DNA from: Tolypothrix bouteillei VB521301
GTDB taxonomy: Bacteria; Cyanobacteriota; Cyanobacteriia; Cyanobacteriales; Nostocaceae
Assembly: GCF_000760695.4 (NCBI RefSeq)
Contig: NZ_JHEG04000001.1
Coordinates: 4,608,895 to 4,672,894, forward strand
Length of the DNA: 64,000 nt
Direction of reading: 5' to 3'
Position 1 is the first letter of the stretch, and every line of letters begins with the position of its first letter. The notes beneath the pieces are model-generated. The model did not search any database. It saw only the letters and a program-made list of their open reading frames with translations, and had not been told where the DNA came from. This document shows positions 16,926 to 23,834 of this stretch, piece by piece. The translations under genes and the position numbers were made by a program.

Positions 16926-19250
16926 TCATCCTAGCGTATCAAGAAACAATTTCATTTCTTCTGCATCCCTTAACATTCCTAAAAGATTAAAACCATTCAT
17001 TGCTTGAATAGCGTACTGGCGAGATGATTCTGCACTTCCCCATTGTCTTTCCCAACGAGCAAAAGAACGCTGATAGCGAGCAAGACGACGTTTGTTGTTG
17101 CTACTTTCTGCTACCGTTAAACCTTTGGTTATTAGCTGTTGAGCTTCATGCTTTTCACCCTGTTCTATAGCTATATCAGCTAGCCAATTTTGAGCAGAGT
17201 TCATGACTCGATACCAGTTAATATTTTCTGCTTTTTGTATTACCTCTTGAAAAAGTGCTTTAGCTTTCATCCATTCATATTCTGAATGAAAAATTTCAGC
17301 ACGATGGTAGAGAACAGGGATTATATAACGAGTGTGCTGTCGCTCTTCTAGCTGAGCGTTTTGAACTAGTTCTTCTTCTAGTGTTAACCAGTACCTTGCA
17401 TCTTGATACATTTTCTGTCGAATTTTCAGTCTAGCCGTCCCTTCTGCTAAGTCAGCTCGAACGCACAAGTCTGCATGATCGCGCAAAACCCATGTCCGTC
17501 GCAAAATTTCTTCTGCTTCTTTCAAATTCTGTTGCGAACACATCCGAATTAACAGCCAGCTTTTGCGGATAGAAAATTTTATAAAAGATGACCATTCACC
17601 CCGCCGTTCCGATTGTTCTATAAGCCATTGCAACCAATGCAGGCGATCGTCCCAGTAAGAGTAAAGGTTGGCATAGTGATATAAAAGCAGCCATAAATCC
17701 CTGACTTCTTCATAACGCTCTTGAGCTTTACACCAGTAAAGTGTTGCTCGCAAATTCCCTTGCTCTTCGTCTAACTTGCTGTAATGTATCCACTTTTCCC
17801 AATCTTCTCCTGCGTTATGTTGAGCAAAATCTTGATAAAAGTTTACCCAACGCTTGCGTGCTTCTCTTTCAAAATCTGGGTATGCAGCCAGTTCGGCTAA
17901 GACATACTCTCTTGTTAAAGAAAGCATTTCATATCGTCCAGTTTCTTGGTTAAGATTCACTAGCGAGAGTTGCTGAAGACGTGCTAAACCCGCATTGACA
18001 GAATCAGGAGATGCTGTGAGTCCAGCGACCTCAGCTACAGCAGCAAGTATTGGTGGATCGGGAAAAATTGCTATTGACATTAGCAACTTGTGAGCTGGTT
18101 GTTCCTTTATACCTTGTACTGATTGCTCAAAGCAGAAACGAGCAACATCACTTGTTGCTGAAGCCAACCTTTCAAGGACAAAATTCATGGAATAGCCACT
18201 AGAGACTTGACCGATGGCATAAACAATGGCGAGAGGAATTCCTCCAGTCCGTTGGTAAAGTAGACTTGAATTTTGAGCGGCGATCGTGACTCCTTTTTCT
18301 TCAGCTTGTTGCTGAATTAACTTCAATCCATCATTCAAAGGTAAGTGGCGGAGACTAATAGGAAGCAAAGCAATCCGTTCGCGAGTCGTCAAGACAACTT
18401 TAACGCGAGCTGGTAAGTCATACAAGAAGCTGATAACTTGTTCCGTCTCCTCAATTGTTTCCATGTTGTCCACAATTAGCATTGTTCTTTGTCTGGACAA
18501 ACTTTGGCGAACGCGATCGAACTGATCGTCGAGAGGAGATTGAATAATAGTAGGGTCGTTGAGAGTATGAGCAATCTCGCGAAAAATGTCTCGCAGATTA
18601 CGTTGTCCCTGATTTCTTCGCAAAATACTATTGGGAATAAGTTCTTGTTGTTTGGCTGACGTGAAAATAATAGCTTCAAATTTGGGTGCGCTAGAAAGGT
18701 TTTCCTGACTGGCTTTCAGGCAATGATAGGCTGCTGCTAAAACCAGAGCAGTTTTCCCTACACCGCCAATACCATCCACTGTAATGATATGAGCAGCATG
18801 ATTGGGTGAAAGGCGTTGCAGTAAAAGTTTCATCTCTGGCTCACGCCCAATAAATTCTGTGTAAGTGGGCGCGGGTAAATTATGAGTGATTGTGGAACTA
18901 CCAACACTAGATACCGAAGCACCCTTACGATACCCGTGTCTTTCCAGAATATAAACTAAGTTACCTGACTTAACGCTTTTATCTGGCTCTCCTGTCAAAG
19001 CTTCTATATCTCTATAGATACTGCTAACACTTGTTCTGACGACAGCATTTTTTTTCAGCAGATCGATACTAATCTTTTTTAGGCTATACCCACATAACAA
19101 TCCTAGTAATAAGTCTTTTCTTGTATCCTGTCGGTATCGCTTTTGTGTTGTTGCCTCCAAATCAGTCAGTAGACGGTCTATGTGCCATTCCTTTAAAACA
19201 TTGCAATTCCAGCTTTTGGGTAAATTCCAATCCTCTGAGCGGTTTGACAT
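16926..19250 (-). CDS. STAND-family NTPase with N-terminal helix-turn-helix-like domain and TPR-like tail
   Basis: 774 residues. The N-terminal ~110 residues form a helical HTH-like region (RKDLLLGLLCGYSLKKISIDLL, SIYRDIEALTGE). The linker ends at FIGREPEMKLLLQRL, the usual entry to an NB-ARC/NACHT-like ATPase. ATPase motifs: Walker A DGIGGVGKTAL (about 160), Walker B TMLIVDNMET, sensor VVLTTRERIALL and the GGIPLAI (GxP) motif. The last ~300 residues are alpha-helical repeats resembling TPR. Such proteins act as ligand-triggered switches in regulation or defence. No effector domain or neighbouring defence gene is recognisable, so a regulatory role is as likely. Confidence 0.82.
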   Translation of the reverse strand: MSNRSEDWNLPKSWNCNVLKEWHIDRLLTDLEATTQKRYRQDTRKDLLLGLLCGYSLKKISIDLLKKNAVVRTSVSSIYRDIEALTGEPDKSVKSGNLVYILERHGYRKGASVSSVGSSTITHNLPAPTYTEFIGREPEMKLLLQRLSPNHAAHIITVDGIGGVGKTALVLAAAYHCLKASQENLSSAPKFEAIIFTSAKQQELIPNSILRRNQGQRNLRDIFREIAHTLNDPTIIQSPLDDQFDRVRQSLSRQRTMLIVDNMETIEETEQVISFLYDLPARVKVVLTTRERIALLPISLRHLPLNDGLKLIQQQAEEKGVTIAAQNSSLLYQRTGGIPLAIVYAIGQVSSGYSMNFVLERLASATSDVARFCFEQSVQGIKEQPAHKLLMSIAIFPDPPILAAVAEVAGLTASPDSVNAGLARLQQLSLVNLNQETGRYEMLSLTREYVLAELAAYPDFEREARKRWVNFYQDFAQHNAGEDWEKWIHYSKLDEEQGNLRATLYWCKAQERYEEVRDLWLLLYHYANLYSYWDDRLHWLQWLIEQSERRGEWSSFIKFSIRKSWLLIRMCSQQNLKEAEEILRRTWVLRDHADLCVRADLAEGTARLKIRQKMYQDARYWLTLEEELVQNAQLEERQHTRYIIPVLYHRAEIFHSEYEWMKAKALFQEVIQKAENINWYRVMNSAQNWLADIAIEQGEKHEAQQLITKGLTVAESSNNKRRLARYQRSFARWERQWGSAESSRQYAIQAMNGFNLLGMLRDAEEMKLFLDTLG

Positions 19251-19516: not shown

Positions 19517-20362
19517 ATGAAAAGATTAATGCACTCCCTAGCTTCTTTTCTAGGTCTAGAGAAAAACAAGGTATGCTTTCCTGGGAAAAAACAAGTTTAT
19601 TTGTTCACAAAGCGTCCCATACTTCACCAAGACTTTACACCCAATTCTTTGGTGGACGCTATTAATGAATTACAAACTATATTACATTCTCAAGGCTTTC
19701 TTGCAAATGTTACTGGAAAATTTGACTTAGAAACGGAGGAAGCTGTTAAGGAATTTCAAAGAAAAAATCATTTATATGTTGATGGAGTTGTTGGGGCGTT
19801 AACTTGGGCTTGCCTTTGTTATCCAACAATTTATCGTGGTATTAAAATATTGACACCAAAATTACAAGAGTCAGTGAAAGAATTACAGAATATTTTGCAC
19901 CACGAAGGATTTCTTAAAAAAGAGCCTTATGGTGTTTTCGATTGGCAAACAGAAAAAGCAGTTAAACATTTCCAACGAAGTTACGGGCTGAAAGATGATG
20001 GTATAGTTGGGGCTGCAACTTGGGCTGTTTTATTAGGGATGAGGCAAAAAAAGGATGCGCGTGTTCCTAAAAATTTTTCTTTTCTGCCATTATCTGTGTT
20101 ATCTATTTGGAAACAATTGTTAATGCTTTGTTTCATAATACTAGGCATCTATAACAGCCCTATTGCAGGTCCAGATCCACAATTTAATAAGGCGTTAGTC
20201 ACTGGGTACGCGCTGACTTATATTGTTCCCTTTATGCTGGATTGTATTCCATTTAAGCAAGCTAGCGAGCAAAAACTACCACTTTTTGAATATGCTCCCT
20301 ATGTGTTAACTGGTATCTTTTGGAAACCGATTCTCAACTTCATAGAGCAACTAGTTAATTAA
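19517..20362 (+). CDS. Membrane-associated protein with two peptidoglycan-binding domains
   Basis: Two PG_binding_1 repeats are visible at about residues 40-100 and 110-175, each with the pattern LQxILHxxGF...TEEAVKxFQRxxxLxxDGxVGAxTW. Two hydrophobic segments follow in the C-terminal third (about 190-250), and there is no classical N-terminal signal. It probably anchors to the cell wall. I chose the ATG at 19517 because AGGAGA lies 6 bases upstream; a TTG at 19478 gives a longer but poorly supported frame. The two repeats are clear; the role is unknown. Confidence 0.75.
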   Translation: MKRLMHSLASFLGLEKNKVCFPGKKQVYLFTKRPILHQDFTPNSLVDAINELQTILHSQGFLANVTGKFDLETEEAVKEFQRKNHLYVDGVVGALTWACLCYPTIYRGIKILTPKLQESVKELQNILHHEGFLKKEPYGVFDWQTEKAVKHFQRSYGLKDDGIVGAATWAVLLGMRQKKDARVPKNFSFLPLSVLSIWKQLLMLCFIILGIYNSPIAGPDPQFNKALVTGYALTYIVPFMLDCIPFKQASEQKLPLFEYAPYVLTGIFWKPILNFIEQLVN

Positions 20363-20471
20363 GTTCTGTGTCCTTAAAAGACCAATTGAGAATCGGGGTA
20401 ACCCGCCAAGAAGTATCAAGGATAAAGGATGAAGTGTTTTGCACAATCCTTCATCCTAATTCCAAAATTAT

Positions 20472-22073
20472 CTATAGTTCGCCTGTCGCTAGCATTTGAA
20501 TGATGCGAGGTATTCCAGGGTCAAAGCCACCCAAATCCCAAGACAATGGATCTTTTGGATCTACTAATGTAATCTGGTAAGGCGCAAGAGTGATATACAC
20601 TGCCTTAGTATTAGAGTTCACCTTTTGACGGTACTCAGCTAACGCTTGGCTTGGGTGCTTGTAACCAGCCCATGATTCGCTGTCAGTCCAAAAGCAAACA
20701 ACATCAGCTTTGAACTTGTTTTTAATCATCCAGTCATAAGCAACAGAAGCATTTGTTCCACCAAAGTTTTGGTTGCTAGCTTTGCGGACTGCTGACCTAA
20801 AGCTATCATCGGCGGTAATACCCAAATCGCGGAAGTCGGTTGCAAAACCACGAATCGCGTAGTTCTTTTCTGCTTTTGCTGTCACCAGAGCCATTGTTGT
20901 AGCTACTTCACAACAAGTGAGTCCCATATCGACAATTGGGCAACTCATGGAACCAGAGACATCTACGGCATGCATGAAGGTTTTACCTGTAGATTCCACC
21001 ACATCAAAAGACAACGCCAAGGACTTTTCTAGGATTTCCACAATTTCATCAACTGGGTTCCAAGTCTTTTTGCTGCGTCCCAATGTACCACCAGATTGAT
21101 AGGTCTTGAGGGCTTTCAAAACATCAATTGGGTGGATGCGACCTTTCCGCAGATGTTCTTTGTTATTGAGCACTGCTTCCACTCTCTTCAAATTGGCACG
21201 TTCGTTTCGCCCTAACACACCTATTTCAGTGAGGGAACCTAAATTACGCAGCAATGCACCAATTGGCATTTCATGGAATAGCAACTGCCAAGCACTTGAA
21301 TCCATCTTACCTACGGGTGCAGCCATTTCATGAGTTAAGCGCCCTTGTAGTATGGCTTCATTGGTTTTTTCTGGATTTCGCTTCAACCACTCATACCACC
21401 AAATCTGCGCTAATGCCGCAGAAGGGATTGTCTCCGGTAGGGTTTCCCAACCTTTGACAACCCACTCAAACAATTGTTGATGGTCTTCTGTCATTGGTTT
21501 GACGTGAAACAACCGCAAAGCATCTCGGTTGGAAAATCCATGACGTTGCTGGTACTTCAGCAATTGGTAAGCCAAACCTTTAACATCTTCTTTTGCAAAC
21601 CAATTTTTACCAACTTCTCGCACAACTTTACCAAACCCTCTCATGGACTTGGTGTAGTTAAGCCATTCATAAAAATGACTTCCCGTGCGGACAACTTGTG
21701 GGAAAATTTCGCAAAATGCTTTCTTTGCTTCTGGTGCTTCCCCCATGGATAACAATACCAAAGCAAGAATAGGCGCACTGTTGTTGATGGCACGTCCATC
21801 ACTTGCATAAAGTATTTCTTCTGCGACTCGTCCTGGATTTTCTGCGATCGCCTGTCTGACAACTTCAACAAAATCTTCTGTCAGTTCGTGTTTGCCAGCA
21901 TAGTAAGTGCTTTTGGCAGTACCAACCAGCAAACAGCGACGCAGCATCTTCCAAGTACCCGCATCGAACATGAACCCACCCGAACGTCCTTGGATCATCT
22001 CTGCTTCCCGTCCGGGAATGGGCTGAGTTTGTGGTGTGGCTGTCTTTTTTTGAGTAAAAAATTTATAATTCAT
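20472..22073 (-). CDS. rsr: Ro60 orthologue (Rsr), TROVE and vWA domains
   Basis: 533 residues from the ATG at 22073, preceded by GGGAG at 8 bases. A longer frame upstream would read through an RNA gene and is rejected. Residues about 20-355 are the HEAT-repeat TROVE ring, which begins GGFMFDAGTWKMLRRCLLVG. The rest is a vWA domain with an intact MIDAS: DVSGSMS (DxSxS), the Thr of FGGTNAS, and TDSES. Known orthologues form a doughnut that binds misfolded RNA ends in its cavity and Y RNAs on its outer face; in Deinococcus a Y RNA tethers Rsr to PNPase. Here four Y-like RNAs lie directly upstream on the same strand, the nearest 37 bases before the start codon. Confidence 0.93.
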   Translation of the reverse strand: MNYKFFTQKKTATPQTQPIPGREAEMIQGRSGGFMFDAGTWKMLRRCLLVGTAKSTYYAGKHELTEDFVEVVRQAIAENPGRVAEEILYASDGRAINNSAPILALVLLSMGEAPEAKKAFCEIFPQVVRTGSHFYEWLNYTKSMRGFGKVVREVGKNWFAKEDVKGLAYQLLKYQQRHGFSNRDALRLFHVKPMTEDHQQLFEWVVKGWETLPETIPSAALAQIWWYEWLKRNPEKTNEAILQGRLTHEMAAPVGKMDSSAWQLLFHEMPIGALLRNLGSLTEIGVLGRNERANLKRVEAVLNNKEHLRKGRIHPIDVLKALKTYQSGGTLGRSKKTWNPVDEIVEILEKSLALSFDVVESTGKTFMHAVDVSGSMSCPIVDMGLTCCEVATTMALVTAKAEKNYAIRGFATDFRDLGITADDSFRSAVRKASNQNFGGTNASVAYDWMIKNKFKADVVCFWTDSESWAGYKHPSQALAEYRQKVNSNTKAVYITLAPYQITLVDPKDPLSWDLGGFDPGIPRIIQMLATGEL

Positions 22074-22109
22074 TGTAGTATCTCCCAGCCCTTGCGGACA
22101 AAAAGGAAG

Positions 22110-22235
22110 GTGGCGGAGCAGGACTCGAACCTGCGACATCCCGCGTGGAAAGCGATAACCCTAATTCTTCGTCCTTTTCAGGCAAGGGATGAATAAGGAT
22201 GTTTAGGCGTTCTATCCATCTGAACTATCCGCCAC
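22110..22235 (-). ncRNA. Y RNA-like tRNA mimic, copy 1 (nearest rsr)
   Basis: On the minus strand: acceptor UGGCGGA paired with UCCGCCA, extended by G-1:C73; D arm GUUC-AGAUGGAUA-GAAC; T arm GCAGG-UUCGAGU-CCUGC. No 7-base anticodon loop exists. The middle of about 70 nt holds an ACAUCC/GGAUGU stem enclosing a CCU-GAAA-AGG hairpin, the GACGAAG element and GGGUUAUCG (plus-strand 22153-22181). CCA is not encoded. GNCGAAG is the Ro60-binding consensus of bacterial Y RNAs, and tRNA-like domains are the hallmark of the YrlA class (established knowledge). It ends 36 bases before the rsr start. Confidence 0.85.
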
Positions 22236-22297
22236 ATGGGGATTAGGGATTGGGGATTCAATCCCTAATCCAAAATCTTAAATCTAAAATAAATTGG

Positions 22298-22437
22298 CGT
22301 GGGAAGCAGGATTTGAACCTGCGAATGATGGAGCCAACGATAACCCTCAATTCTTCAGCCTTTACAGACAAGTTTGTGAACCAAGGACTACGGGCAAATT
22401 GCCCATCCACTGCCTTACCAGACTTGGCTACTCCCAC
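22298..22437 (-). ncRNA. Y RNA-like tRNA mimic, copy 2
   Basis: Acceptor GUGGGAG with UUCCCAC (last pair G:U), discriminator G; D arm GCC...GGC containing GUCUGGUAA; T arm GCAGG-UUCAAAU-CCUGC. The insert carries an extra perfect hairpin GGGCAA-A-UUGCCC (plus 22392-22404). It is followed by the Y module (plus 22338-22367): GUCU-GUAA-AGGC hairpin, GCUGAAG and GGGUUAUCG. The GNCGAAG core has C to U, which can still pair as G:U. At 140 nt it is the longest copy. Confidence 0.82.
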
Positions 22438-22440
22438 ATA

Positions 22441-22485
22441 AATATTCATAATTCATCATTCATAATTCATCATTCATCATGAATT
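22441..22485. repeat. AATTCAT(A/C) short repeats between Y RNA copies 2 and 3
   Basis: A spacer made almost entirely of AATTCATAATTCATCATTCAT-type units. The spacer between copies 3 and 4 (22619-22655) has the same composition. That between copies 1 and 2 (22236-22290) instead holds a GGGGATTAGGGATTGGGG / CAATCCCTAATCC inverted repeat. Confidence 0.7.
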
Positions 22486-22488
22486 GGT

Positions 22489-22618
22489 GTGGTGGGGCGG
22501 GAGTCGAACCCGCAGCATACCCGATTCCGAAGTCGATAACCCTCAATTCTTCGGTCTTTTCAGACAAGGGGTGAACAAGGATTTTTTTGGTGCGTTTACC
22601 AATTTCGCCACCCACCAC
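22489..22618 (-). ncRNA. Y RNA-like tRNA mimic, copy 3 (tRNA-Leu-like backbone)
   Basis: Acceptor UGGUGGG with CCCACCA plus G-1:C73. The D arm GGCGAAAUUGGUAAACGC is very close to that of bacterial tRNA-Leu, and the T arm is GCGGG-UUCGACU-CCCGC. The Y module (plus 22534-22563) has the cleanest fold: GUCU-GAAA-AGAC, then C-C-G-A-A-G. CUUGUC pairs with GAC, a bulged C, GA and then G. This gives the same helix with bulged C as the conserved vertebrate Y RNA Ro-binding stem, but closed by a tetraloop at the opposite end. No anticodon loop. Confidence 0.85.
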
Positions 22619-22663
22619 ATAAATAATTCATAATTCACAATTCATAATTCATTATGGATTGGT

Positions 22664-22790
22664 GTAGCGGGGCGGGATTTGAACCCGCATCTCCGGTGAA
22701 TAAAGGGGGGGATCGTTAAAAGCGATAACCCTAAATTCTATCGTCCTTTTCAGGCTATGTTGGCGCTCTACCGTTTGAGCTACCTGCCAC
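22664..22790 (-). ncRNA. Y RNA-like tRNA mimic, copy 4 (promoter-proximal)
   Basis: Acceptor UGGCAGG with CCCGCUA (one A:C mismatch, one G:U) plus G-1:C73; D arm GCUC-AAACGGUA-GAGC; T arm GCGGG-UUCAAAU-CCCGC. The Y module (plus 22723-22753) is CCU-GAAA-AGG, GACGAUAG and GGGUUAUCG. Unlike the others, the module directly follows the D arm, and the pyrimidine-rich CCUUUAUUCACC lies 3' of it. It is the first transcribed RNA, starting about 12 bases after the predicted transcription start. Confidence 0.82.
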
Positions 22791-22808
22791 ATATCAGCTT
22801 GTAGTCTT

Positions 22809-22837
22809 AATGTAGTATATGTATTACTAGGTGTCAA
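22809..22837 (-). promoter_or_regulatory. Predicted sigma70-type promoter of the Y RNA-rsr operon
   Basis: Minus strand: TTGACA at 22837-22832, a 17-base spacer, then TACATT (4 of 6 matches to TATAAT) at 22814-22809. Transcription would start near 22802 and reach copy 4 at 22790. I see no comparable promoter between the RNA copies. Confidence 0.6.
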
Positions 22838-23099
22838 GTGGCTGGGTCAAAAATTTTCTCGCTGCTATTGTAAAGCGGATTCTGCCCACCCTACTTTTTA
22901 CTGAGCACTTGAGGCAGATCCTCCCTTAAGGCATTCCCTGGGTCAACCACCGGAGCGAGAGGGAGACGGTCGCTGCTCCTCATTTGCCAAATTTTTGCCA
23001 GGAAAATTTTTTGGCAAATAGACAATTGTTACAAACTATTGCCATCTTTTTTGCCAAGATTATATTATTTCTCAACAAAGACACTTGGCAGTAATCGGC
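22838..23099. promoter_or_regulatory. Divergent intergenic region with TTGCCAA hairpin
   Basis: TTTGCCAA at 22983-22990 and TTGGCAAA at 23011-23018 form an 8-bp inverted repeat. Its interior contains ATTTTTGCCAGG and AAAATTTT, which extends the pairing. It lies about 80 bases before the membrane protein gene and could be an operator or hairpin. No gene is seen in the rest of the region. Confidence 0.4.
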
Positions 23100-23834
23100 A
23101 TGAGTGAAAAAACAATAGAAAGCTACGGCAAGGGTTTTCTAGTTCTACTTTTGCCTATCTCGTTTTTAATTATTTTCCTAGTTGCCACCTGGCGAATCTG
23201 GCTGGGGATAATCCTTCTTGTCTTGATGCTTAATGTTTGGCAATTATATAAATGGCAACAATGGAGCCAACAAGTTAATCCAATGTTCCATCAATTGCTT
23301 AGGGAAAATCAAGGCAGGATTACACCTGTAGACTTGGCAATGAAAGGCAATTTTTCTGGGGAAACGGCAAAACGTTACTTGGAATCGAAAGCAGCAGAAT
23401 TTGGTGCTCGTGCTATTGACTCTGAAGATGGAGGTAAAGTTTATTACTTTATCACTGCTAGTACTCTGGGTAGCATTCTAGATGATAGCGAACCACCAAA
23501 AGAACTTCCTGCTGAACGTGTTGCCTACCAACCTCTACCAATTATTGCTCCACCTCCACCCAAACCGCTTGTGGAAGAACCAGAGGCTGAGTTACCACCT
23601 CAGCCACCTCAAGAGACTCCAAAAAAATCGCTGGAGAAACAGTTGTTTTTTGGTTCTCTGATTCAATCTGAACTTGCCAAGCGGCTCAATGTTTATTCCA
23701 GTACCGTCTACAAAAGGAGAGACGATCCAGATTTTCCGGAGTGGAGTCGCAGCAAAGATCCAGATGGCATTGCTTGGAAATACTCTCGAAAAACTAAGGA
23801 GTTTTTCCCATTAGAACTAGACGAAAAAAGTTAA
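23100..23834 (+). CDS. Membrane protein with N-terminal hydrophobic hairpin and C-terminal DNA-binding-like domain
   Basis: 244 residues from the ATG at 23100; a TTG at 23085 would add 5. Residues about 10-55 hold two adjacent membrane segments (FLVLLLPISFLIIFLVATW, IWLGIILLVLMLNVW). A cytoplasmic winged-helix-like segment follows (GRITPVDLAMKGNFSGETAKRYLESKAAEFGA). Then comes a Pro/Glu-rich linker, and a final domain (about 175-244) containing LIQSELAKRLNVYSSTVYKRRDDPDFPEWSR. That last piece reads as a helix-turn-helix of the kind that distinguishes sites before a basic tail. I do not recognise a named family. Confidence 0.7.
   Translation: MSEKTIESYGKGFLVLLLPISFLIIFLVATWRIWLGIILLVLMLNVWQLYKWQQWSQQVNPMFHQLLRENQGRITPVDLAMKGNFSGETAKRYLESKAAEFGARAIDSEDGGKVYYFITASTLGSILDDSEPPKELPAERVAYQPLPIIAPPPPKPLVEEPEAELPPQPPQETPKKSLEKQLFFGSLIQSELAKRLNVYSSTVYKRRDDPDFPEWSRSKDPDGIAWKYSRKTKEFFPLELDEKS

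What the first reader, a model, noticed from the sequence alone, without database searches (positions are those of the whole stretch)
20472..22837. Ro60-Y RNA operon with four tRNA-mimicking Y RNAs
Directly upstream of the Ro60 gene (rsr), on the same strand and behind one promoter, lie four tandem RNA genes. Each has tRNA acceptor, D and T arms but no anticodon loop. In place of the anticodon arm all four share a module: a 3-4 bp stem capped by a GNRA loop, then (G/A)N(C/U)GA-A/U-AG, then an A/U-rich spacer and GGGUUAUCG. The first part matches the GNCGAAG Ro-binding consensus of bacterial Y RNAs, and tRNA-like domains are known for YrlA-type Y RNAs. Four copies for one Ro60 protein, all of them tRNA mimics, is a large set. 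It suggests one receptor with several alternative RNA lids or guides.
Basis: partly seen in the sequence, partly recalled or inferred. Interest (0 to 1): 0.92.

Follow-up and report, generated by a model that had tools for sequence, protein, structure and literature searches.

The report
Rotated tRNA-shaped Y RNAs beside Ro60
A cyanobacterium carries four small tRNA-shaped RNAs just ahead of the gene for Ro60, an RNA quality-control protein; each holds the protein's predicted docking site in place of the anticodon, in an order rotated relative to known bacterial Y RNAs, and a copy of that docking site also sits at the ribosome start site of the Ro60 gene, which suggests self-control.

Summary
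Window 20472-22073 (-) encodes an Rsr/Ro60 protein. Directly upstream, on the same strand and behind one conserved promoter element, lie four RNAs with acceptor, D and T arms and a Y RNA module in place of the anticodon arm. In 291 genomes of the same order, 68 have such units and all 68 have rsr; the other three of 71 rsr-positive genomes hold two remnants and one distant rsr; none of 220 rsr-negative genomes passes. Three to four units per locus is usual.

YrlA ends in the Ro-binding stem and closes its acceptor; these end at the acceptor and close the Ro stem with a GNRA-type loop. A model of rotated units outscored the unrotated one in 10 of 10 distant Ro60 loci. (2) The rsr leader carries a small copy of the Ro-binding hairpin with the Shine-Dalgarno in its 3' strand, in 80 of 80 named loci; I infer autoregulation. 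The evidence is comparative; no transcript or binding was measured. The key 2014 bacterial Y RNA paper was not readable here, so priority is unchecked.

The parts
22809..22837 (-). Promoter TTGACA-17-TACATT in front of the array; the conserved ATACTACATTAAtACTACAA stretch (22799-22818) overlaps and follows it
   Evidence: 10 of 12 consensus; a like element within 330 nt upstream of the first core in 53 of 73 loci examined, all 53 with TTGAC; 0 hits in 127 kb of rsr CDS
22664..22790 (-). Unit 1 (leader type, CCA encoded after it): acceptor 5', D arm, Ro hairpin GCCUGAAAAGGACGA, GGGUUAUCG, then the CCUUUAUUC strand on the 3' side, T arm, acceptor 3'
   Evidence: RF00005 38.5 bits spanning a large insert; R1 51.0 bits; leader-type relatives aligned, 97.0% cells paired
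22489..22618 (-). Unit 2 (tRNA-Leu-like D arm, by recall; ACCA encoded)
   Evidence: R1 116.1 bits
22298..22438 (-). Unit 3 (tRNA-Gln-like D arm, by recall; extra hairpin GGGCAAUUUGCCC; CCA encoded)
   Evidence: R1 66.4 bits; MFE contains a long module helix
22110..22235 (-). Unit 4, no encoded CCA, next to the rsr leader
   Evidence: R1 128.8 bits
22082..22109 (-). rsr mRNA leader hairpin: CUUCC-UUUUU-GUCC-GCAA-GGGC-U-GGGAG; UUG..GGNYG matches the Ro-binding core, and the Shine-Dalgarno GGGAG is the 3' strand of the outer helix
   Evidence: pattern in 80 of 80 named loci within 50 nt of the start versus 13 hits in 127.2 kb of rsr CDS; MFE
20472..22073 (-). rsr (Ro60) CDS, TROVE plus vWA domain, DVSGSMS MIDAS-like motif
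20352..20407 (-). Eroded 5' half of a downstream unit without D arm, intact in the same-genus locus L002
   Evidence: local alignment of 20302-20460 scores 104 versus a maximum of 81.5 in 200 shuffles

Best explanation
This is an rsr operon whose upstream RNAs are Y RNAs in tRNA order. SHOWN by comparison: each unit is acceptor(8 bp)-D arm-module-T arm-acceptor; the module carries the Ro60-binding core (CUUGNC ... GN(C)CGAAG) closed by a GNRA-type loop, a flanking complementary stretch, and an almost invariant GGGUUAUCG. The units are circular permutants of the YrlA-type RNAs beside other ro60 genes. They occur with rsr and were not found without it. INFERRED: one transcript covers the array and rsr. 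RNase P and tRNA 3' processing cut at the tRNA-like ends and release the Y RNAs and the rsr mRNA. Rsr binds the module at the outer rim of its ring; the tRNA-like body projects outward and acts as gate and as a handle for tRNA-recognising proteins or PNPase. The rsr leader hairpin is a minimal copy of the binding site that includes the Shine-Dalgarno, so free Rsr would block its own translation, while newly made Y RNAs, or structured and damaged RNAs, would titrate Rsr and relieve the block.
For: Co-occurrence 68 of 71 rsr genomes and 0 of 220 without. Of 179 R1 matches in 41 rsr loci, 178 are on the rsr strand, and all 41 loci have an upstream unit. Covariation. Rotated model R2 beats unrotated R1 in 10 of 10 distant Ro60 loci, e.g. 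69.0, 65.0, 60.1 and 54.0 bits; the reverse holds in cyanobacterial loci with one upstream unit, L017 94.6 (R1) against 44.0 (R2) and L014 126.8 against 47.2. The 5' core of the nematode Y-like consensus, GGUCCGGAG-ucga-UGGGUUAUC, aligns without gaps to simple Y RNAs of the same phylum (37.4 bits, cut-off 38). Leader hairpin 80 of 80. Positions recalled as Y RNA contacts (K170, R174, H187, Xenopus numbering) are conserved in the window's Rsr. In Chlorogloeopsis fritschii PCC 9212 a TROVE transcript rises after erythromycin (PMC6424891, passages) and, with RtcB, in coculture (PMC11423583, passage); its sister strain PCC 6912 has the array (L105).
Against: No transcript, processing or binding was measured. 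The flanking module helix rests mainly on conservation: only 1 of 10 pairs in A2 and 0 of 9 in A5 show changes on both sides, and MFE folds of window units 2 and 4 do not show it. Fold z-scores of the units are modest (-0.73 to -2.20). L112 has no unit and L117 only one decayed upstream match at 23.4 bits. In the order-wide search only 12 candidates per genome were scored and stricter filters were on, so absence is less certain than presence. An ordinary tRNA gives R2 up to 32.1 bits, so of the ten distant hits 32.4 and 26.0 are not above background by score. The leader loci are related by descent, so 80 of 80 is not 80 independent events.
Confidence: 0.82

Rival explanations
1. They are ordinary tRNA genes interrupted by a small intron in the anticodon loop.
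For: ARAGORN with introns allowed models all four as intron-containing tRNAs; unit 1 passes RF00005 (38.5 bits, cut-off 29). The four bodies resemble different tRNAs.
Against: Anticodons and insertion points are inconsistent. No group I/II intron family is among the listed matches at E up to 10. The acceptor has 8 bp, with double changes in all 8 pairs. The insert carries the Ro-binding core and the locus travels with rsr.
Confidence: 0.03
2. The functional RNAs are ordinary YrlA-order RNAs: the transcript is cut inside the module loops, so each RNA runs from the T arm of one unit to the D arm of the next.
For: RF02553 matches across the unit 2/unit 3 junction at 24 bits; the rotated model R2 scores up to 108 bits across junctions in multi-unit arrays. 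YrlA-order RNAs seem to exist elsewhere in the same genome.
Against: 24 bits is noise level: two ordinary adjacent tRNAs in L210 give 27.8. Loci with a single upstream unit exist (L014, L017). The first unit has a complete 5' acceptor strand and the last a complete 3' strand. The acceptor is not closed, and spacers between units are long and variable. Unrotated R1 scores far higher than R2 in loci with one upstream unit.
Confidence: 0.06
3. The RNAs are tRNA decoys for stress nucleases or tRNA-modifying and repair enzymes, and Rsr only stabilises them.
For: A decoy role for YrlA against an anticodon nuclease is proposed in PMC7790460 (passage); the bodies resemble several tRNA types; TROVE and RtcB transcripts rise together in C. 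fritschii.
Against: No anticodon is present; the most constant part is the Ro-binding module, not the tRNA body. Not exclusive of the best explanation.
Confidence: 0.09

Closest known systems
YrlA, Rfam RF02553 (Salmonella type; also in phages)
   Same: tRNA-like T, acceptor and D arms plus a Ro60-binding stem; encoded beside ro60; homologous module (rotated model finds them)
   Different: Opposite ends: YrlA opens in the Ro stem and closes the acceptor, the cyanobacterial RNAs open at the acceptor and close the Ro stem with a GNRA-type loop. RF02553 scores only 24 bits here. That YrlA is a circular permutant of tRNA is known (PMC11472068, passages); these RNAs are the unrotated counterpart.
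Simple hairpin Y RNAs (animal Y RNAs, nematode sbRNAs RF01656)
   Same: GGNCCGRAG, UUAUC in the loop, CUUGNCC; UUAUC is reported as shared by sbRNAs and vertebrate Y RNAs (PMC4726728, passages)
   Different: No tRNA-like body; ends in the Ro stem
D. radiodurans Rsr-Y RNA-PNPase (RYPER)
   Same: Rsr orthologue (2nvo, 3.1e-72); Y RNA as gate and tether
   Different: The tether to PNPase is described there (PMC8058203 and PMC8394870, passages), only assumed here; RNA topology differs
tRNA (RF00005)
   Same: 5' to 3' order of arms, T loop, encoded CCA after 67 of the 150 best of 179 matches
   Different: 8-bp acceptor, no anticodon arm

Membership tests
Ro60/Rsr protein | TROVE plus Ro60-type vWA domain | tested here: met
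   PF05731 62.3 bits and PF25045 128.2 bits, both over cut-off. NCBIfam NF041674 matches at 1.8e-91 but below its equivalog cut-off (307 of 900 bits)
Ro60/Rsr protein | Y RNA-contact residues K170, R174, H187 (Xenopus numbering; roles recalled) | tested here: met
   KYQQR and FHVKP aligned to KYKQR and SHIKP in 1yvp
Ro60/Rsr protein | Ring-shaped fold that binds Y RNA on its outer surface | not tested
   No structure was predicted
Y RNA | Encoded next to ro60 | tested here: met
   41 of 41 loci; 73 of 75 named loci with at least 1400 nt upstream
Y RNA | Ro-binding core GNCGAA(N)G (consensus recalled) with its partner strand CUUG | tested here: met
   Columns in A1/A2; consensus of RF02553 and RF01656 for comparison
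Y RNA | Bound by Ro60 in the cell | not testable with these tools
   Needs immunoprecipitation or EMSA
YrlA (RF02553) | Score over gathering cut-off (69 bits) | tested here: not met
   24.0 bits
YrlA (RF02553) | Order Ro stem 5' - T - closed acceptor - D - Ro stem 3' | tested here: not met
   Order is acceptor - D - module - T - acceptor; R1 exceeds R2 in cyanobacterial loci with one upstream unit
tRNA (RF00005) | Anticodon arm and 7-bp acceptor | tested here: not met
   No tRNA by ARAGORN without introns; 8-bp acceptor. Unit 1 does pass the RF00005 score
Group I/II intron host | Intron covariance match | tested here: not met
   No intron family among the matches listed at E up to 10 in 20000-23500

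The most novel reading that the evidence does not exclude
Cyanobacteria carry a distinct, circularly permuted class of Y RNA in tRNA order, made in tandem sets of up to ten, and their Ro60 controls its own synthesis: the rsr leader contains a stripped-down Y RNA whose Ro-binding helix sequesters the Shine-Dalgarno, so the Y RNA set, tRNA-like cargo and Ro60 level form one feedback loop. Because simple, YrlA-type and permuted Y RNAs all occur in one phylum with the same GGNCCG-GGGUUAUC-CUUG core that nematode Y-like RNAs have, the core would be ancient and the tRNA-like body would have been joined to it, with a change of ends in tandem arrays producing the permutation.
Probability: 0.45. Interest if true: 0.86.

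Novelty: new variant of a known kind. Interest (0 to 1): 0.74.

Why it matters
It gives a natural circular permutation of a structured non-coding RNA with both forms available for comparison, and a route by which tRNA-like Y RNAs could have arisen. It predicts a testable autogenous control of Ro60, a protein conserved from bacteria to humans whose Y RNA roles remain debated. A review states that bacterial Y RNAs are not homologous with the vertebrate clades (PMC4726728, passage); the shared core and UUAUC motif seen here speak for a common module. A copy in Synechococcus PCC 7002 (plasmid pAQ7) makes the questions accessible in a laboratory strain.

Tried and rejected
Rejected: spliced tRNAs and intron hosts; plain YrlA membership. 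RF02553 at the unit 2/3 junction (24 bits) carries no weight: two ordinary adjacent tRNAs in L210 score 27.8. I first took the 25.5-25.8-bit YrlA matches elsewhere in the own genome for ordinary tandem tRNAs; ARAGORN finds none at two of them and the third lies between tRNAs, and by eye they have YrlA order with a closed acceptor, so that reading was dropped. A promoter-like repeat was searched in the own genome for a regulon: 11 matches with up to 3 mismatches against 7 for the reversed control, so nothing to claim from the count. An exact core pattern in viral contigs gave 0. MFE folds of single units are not decisive.

Rows dropped before counts: one search printed 67 candidate units from 18 loci (L018, L020-L022 skipped); A1 used 48 of them (downstream units without D arm and units with badly fitted ends left out). 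A2 used 34 of those 48 (six leader-type, five with an extra hairpin, three divergent L013 units left out). R2 used 18 of the 34. A5 used 29 of 42 first units extracted plus the window unit; 13 left out, mostly standard-type units, and a further 13 loci were skipped by the script itself. In one search, 73 of 80 loci were examined, 75 of 80. The genome-contig scan kept 80 of 141 relatives. Ten of 411 phage and plasmid records with a match were fetched, one of them (L161) cyanobacterial. The 68-genome list was taken by eye at E <= 2.5e-10 (best rsr-negative 2.8e-9) and recounted; R1's tally of 291 of 291 there counts tRNA matches and means nothing by itself. The list was cut (28 of 328 not shown), so per-locus counts come from the motif script. 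An earlier count said that R2 hits lie upstream of ro60 in 10 of 10 loci; in L164 the hit lies downstream (corrected).

Not read: Chen et al. 2014 (10.1261/rna.047241.114), Sim and Wolin 2018, Wang et al. 2018, Chen et al. 2013, Boccitto and Wolin 2019 and Sim et al. 2020 are not held. That I saw no report on cyanobacterial or tRNA-order Y RNAs rests on the listings of searches only, several of them capped (e.g. 25 of 2,056, 20 of 44, 15 of 32, 10 of 30).
Full report
What is in the window. On the - strand, a promoter (TTGACA 22837-22832, TACATT 22814-22809) is followed by four RNA units (22664-22790, 22489-22618, 22298-22438, 22110-22235), a short leader and rsr (ATG at 22073, stop at 20472). 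No terminator-like site was found in 20300-23200 (0 against a shuffled mean of 3.3). The protein is a Ro60 orthologue: Pfam vWA_Ro60 3.7e-37 and TROVE 6.4e-17, D. radiodurans Rsr 2nvo 3.1e-72 and Ro60 1yvp 3.3e-68. It misses the NCBIfam equivalog cut-off (307 of 900 bits). The motif DVSGSMS and the positions that I recall as Y RNA contacts (K170, R174, H187) are conserved. It is the only rsr in the genome found with the protein or with PF05731.

The units are real and constrained. I extracted candidate units from the rsr loci of relatives, aligned 48 of 67, and kept 34 with standard layout. For a structure that I derived from that alignment (8-bp acceptor, 4-bp D, module helix, 4-bp Ro hairpin, 5-bp T) 97.0% of cells pair, against 88.8% in 500 shuffles and 41-53% for slid versions; 17 pairs show changes on both sides, against 8.7. 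RNAalifold on all 48 gave 19 pairs, 16 with double changes. Weak points: the module helix AUCCUU.NUUC/GAAUN.AGGGU is 95% paired but only 1 of its 10 pairs has a double change, and single-sequence folds are ambiguous (z -0.73 to -2.20; the helix appears in the MFE of unit 3 and, in its 3'-side form, of unit 1, not of units 2 and 4). UUAUCG is invariant in the 34 rows.

A second layout. The first unit of the window's array has the CCUU(N)AUUC strand on the 3' side of the core instead of the 5' side. Thirty such units (29 from named loci plus the window's) pair in 97.0% of cells under the swapped structure, slid versions 39-48%; the swapped helix is 92.9% paired with no double changes. The complementarity is kept while its strand order changes, which is a small permutation inside the module.

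Distribution. In 291 genomes of the order, every genome matches R1 at tRNA level, but 68 have a best E of 2.5e-10 or lower; rsr is found in 71 genomes (E <= 1e-20); the 68 are a subset of the 71, and 0 of 220 rsr-negative genomes pass (best 2.8e-9). Only 12 candidates per genome were scored. The three exceptions are two 64-residue remnants (G077, G191) and one distant Rsr (33% identity, G274). In 41 rsr loci R1 gives 179 matches, 178 on the rsr strand, with an upstream unit in all 41. In 75 named loci with at least 1400 nt upstream, core counts are 0:2, 1:3, 2:10, 3:23, 4:20, 5:12, 6:2, 7:1, 8:1, 10:1; 51 of 75 also have a core within 600 nt downstream of rsr; controls are 0 in 127.2 kb of CDS and 6 on the opposite strand in 585 kb. 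L112 has no unit, L117 one decayed match on either side of rsr (23.4 and 25.1 bits). The four units of the window are therefore ordinary for this lineage. In the own genome only these four exceed tRNA size. The downstream unit lacks a D arm in relatives and survives in the window only as an eroded 5' half. The promoter element is found in 53 of 73 loci, all 53 with TTGAC.

Topology. The Rfam YrlA model reads, 5' to 3', Ro strand - T - closed acceptor - D - Ro strand (consensus). The cyanobacterial units read acceptor - D - Ro strand (CUUGNC) - GNRA-type loop - Ro strand (GN(C)CGAAG) - T - acceptor. To test whether one is a rotation of the other I rotated units by script, cutting in the loop and joining the 3' end with its four natural trailing bases to the 5' end, and built model R2 from 18 of them. 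On ten distant Ro60 loci (eight phage, one Bosea plasmid, one cyanobacterial genome with the distant Rsr), R2 against best R1 bits were: L164 69.0/39.5, L165 65.0/37.5, L163 60.1/41.5, L170 54.0/39.3, L171 50.5/37.4, L167 48.2/39.4, L166 45.3/22.3, L168 38.1/20.7, L169 32.4/28.0, L162 26.0/none. R2 is higher in 10 of 10, and several R1 values are ordinary tRNAs. Background: R2 gives 32.1 bits on an ordinary tRNA-Asn of the own genome and up to 23.7 on tRNAs of L171, so eight of the ten exceed background by score and two do not. Rfam YrlA itself scored 46.8, 42.2 and 39.3 on its best three. In cyanobacterial loci with one upstream unit the relation is reversed: L017 94.6 (R1) against 44.0 (R2), L014 126.8 against 47.2. 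In two phage loci the acceptor is visibly closed by UUCG, GAAA or similar loops.

Three topologies in one phylum. In two further genomes of the class (L206, L207; Rsr 73% and 72%) R1 gives 117 and 92 bits against R2 52.0 and 45.7, so the permuted form extends there. Outside the class, L210 (36%) has a YrlA-order RNA beside a row of tRNAs (R2 56.4; Rfam YrlA 38.4). L211 and L212 (34%, 33%) have, by eye, simple hairpins GGGCCGGAG..UGGGUUAUC..UUUG(C/U)CC; against the nematode Y-like family RF01656 (cut-off 38) L211 scores 37.4 (E 6.8e-5) and 31.3 (E 0.0028), L212 only 23.5 (E 0.3), with consensus GGUCCGGAG-ucga-UGGGUUAUC...ACUUGACC. All are below the cut-off. sbRNAs are described as Y RNA homologues, and UUAUC in the loop as shared with vertebrate Y RNAs; the same review calls bacterial Y RNAs not homologous with the vertebrate clades (PMC4726728, passages). 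The shared order and spacing of core and UUAUC argue for a common module.

The rsr leader. In 80 of 80 named loci the 50 nt before the codon after the rsr start hold UUG(C/U)C-N-loop-N'-GG with a paired closing position; the same pattern occurs 13 times in 127.2 kb of rsr CDS (0.10 per kb). There are 17 distinct hairpins, with C-G, U-A and U-G closing pairs and GCAA, GAAA, GUAA, GCGA and other loops. The stem is in the MFE of 75 of 80 leaders, and the GGN after the loop ends 14 nt before the start codon in 62 of 80 (the script counted 17, to the codon after it). In the window the Shine-Dalgarno GGGAG pairs with CUUCC in the outer helix. In three Prochloron-type leaders (L148, L151, L153) GGCCGUAG replaces GGCCGGGAG, so the hairpin persists where the strong Shine-Dalgarno does not. 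PCC 7002 and L206/L207 have comparable hairpins by eye. These loci are related, so the count measures conservation, not independent origins.

Mechanism. The array and rsr are probably one transcript. tRNA-type ends (67 of the 150 best of 179 matches have an encoded CCA next to the end) suggest release by RNase P and tRNA 3' processing, which would free both Y RNAs and the rsr mRNA. Rsr should bind every module; several bodies of different tRNA types would give several surfaces on one receptor. Free Rsr should also bind the leader and block ribosomes, so Rsr would be made only when Y RNA or competing structured RNA is in excess. In C. fritschii PCC 9212 a TROVE transcript 'increased dramatically' with erythromycin (PMC6424891, passages) and by 4.5 log2 units together with RtcB (3.5) in coculture (PMC11423583, passage and abstract); I did not verify that locus in PCC 9212 itself, only in PCC 6912 (L105). 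Processing, binding and feedback are inference.

A second array in the same genome. While checking a 41.3-bit R2 match outside the rsr locus (G000:C1:264680-264813) I found another RNA array (L214). It starts behind TTGACA-17-TACATT with ATACTACATTTGTAGTAT, the same kind of promoter element as the rsr array. It holds tRNA-like and Y-like pieces in repeated frames (GUGCCCUGA..AAAAAGCUUAC ... AGCUUUUU..ACUUGCAUG), two of them around ARAGORN tRNAs with anticodons CUA and UAA and one in YrlA order with a closed acceptor. It ends at a 498-aa vWA protein whose only matches among solved structures are 'TROVE domain-containing protein' chains (7.2e-4), followed by a 277-aa protein and a ThiF-family protein. 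So this genome seems to hold both Y RNA orders, each with its own TROVE-like partner. This was read by eye and is not tested further.

Verdict. The finding is a new variant of a known kind: Y RNAs, but circularly permuted relative to YrlA, in arrays, with a likely autoregulatory mimic in the rsr leader. Whether the 2014 survey of bacterial Y RNAs already listed cyanobacterial members could not be checked.

Noticed in passing
L214 (G000:C1:255500-275000), - strand, 10250 to 4988: Second array of tRNA-like/Y-like RNAs in the same genome behind the same kind of promoter element, with tRNAs of anticodon CUA and UAA inside Y-like frames, a small ORF, a 498-aa vWA protein distantly like a TROVE protein (7.2e-4), a 277-aa protein without family match and a ThiF-family protein.
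   Followed up: partly
G000:C1:160725-161013 (L078, L079, L215): Two tandem YrlA-order tRNA-like pieces with closed acceptors (RF02553 25.5 and 25.7 bits, R2 31.6 and 29.6), no ARAGORN tRNA and no rsr beside them.
   Followed up: partly
L171 (G274:C31:42500-49500) and L210: A distant rsr (33-36% identity) lies inside or beside a row of tRNAs (L171: 17 by ARAGORN, 20 by RF00005; L210: 8), with YrlA-order Y RNAs. Ro60 and Y RNAs may travel with tRNA arrays.
   Followed up: partly
window 22980-23091, also L004, L010, L020: Several TTGGCAAA / TTTGCCAA repeats between the array promoter and the divergent gene at 23085; they look like operator sites, perhaps of that gene.
   Followed up: no
phage records, e.g. 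L164 (Gordonia phage Sixama) 3453-3874: 344 phage records encode a Ro-like protein; beside one of them a tmRNA match of 88.1 bits, four tRNAs and a Y RNA lie together.
   Followed up: partly
L161 (NC_010474.1, plasmid pAQ7 of Picosynechococcus PCC 7002): A genetically tractable strain carries rsr with three upstream units and, by eye, a leader hairpin on a plasmid.
   Followed up: partly
window 22622-22660 and 22443-22485: Spacers between units are short A/T-rich direct repeats (ATGAATTATGAATT...), other repeats in relatives; their role, if any, is unknown.
   Followed up: no
window 16926-19250: An NB-ARC/AAA ATPase with TPR repeats lies downstream of rsr on the same strand; no link to rsr was tested.
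   Followed up: no
L112, L117: Two of 75 rsr loci lack recognisable upstream cores; both are draft contigs. The rsr leader hairpin is still present in both.
   Followed up: partly
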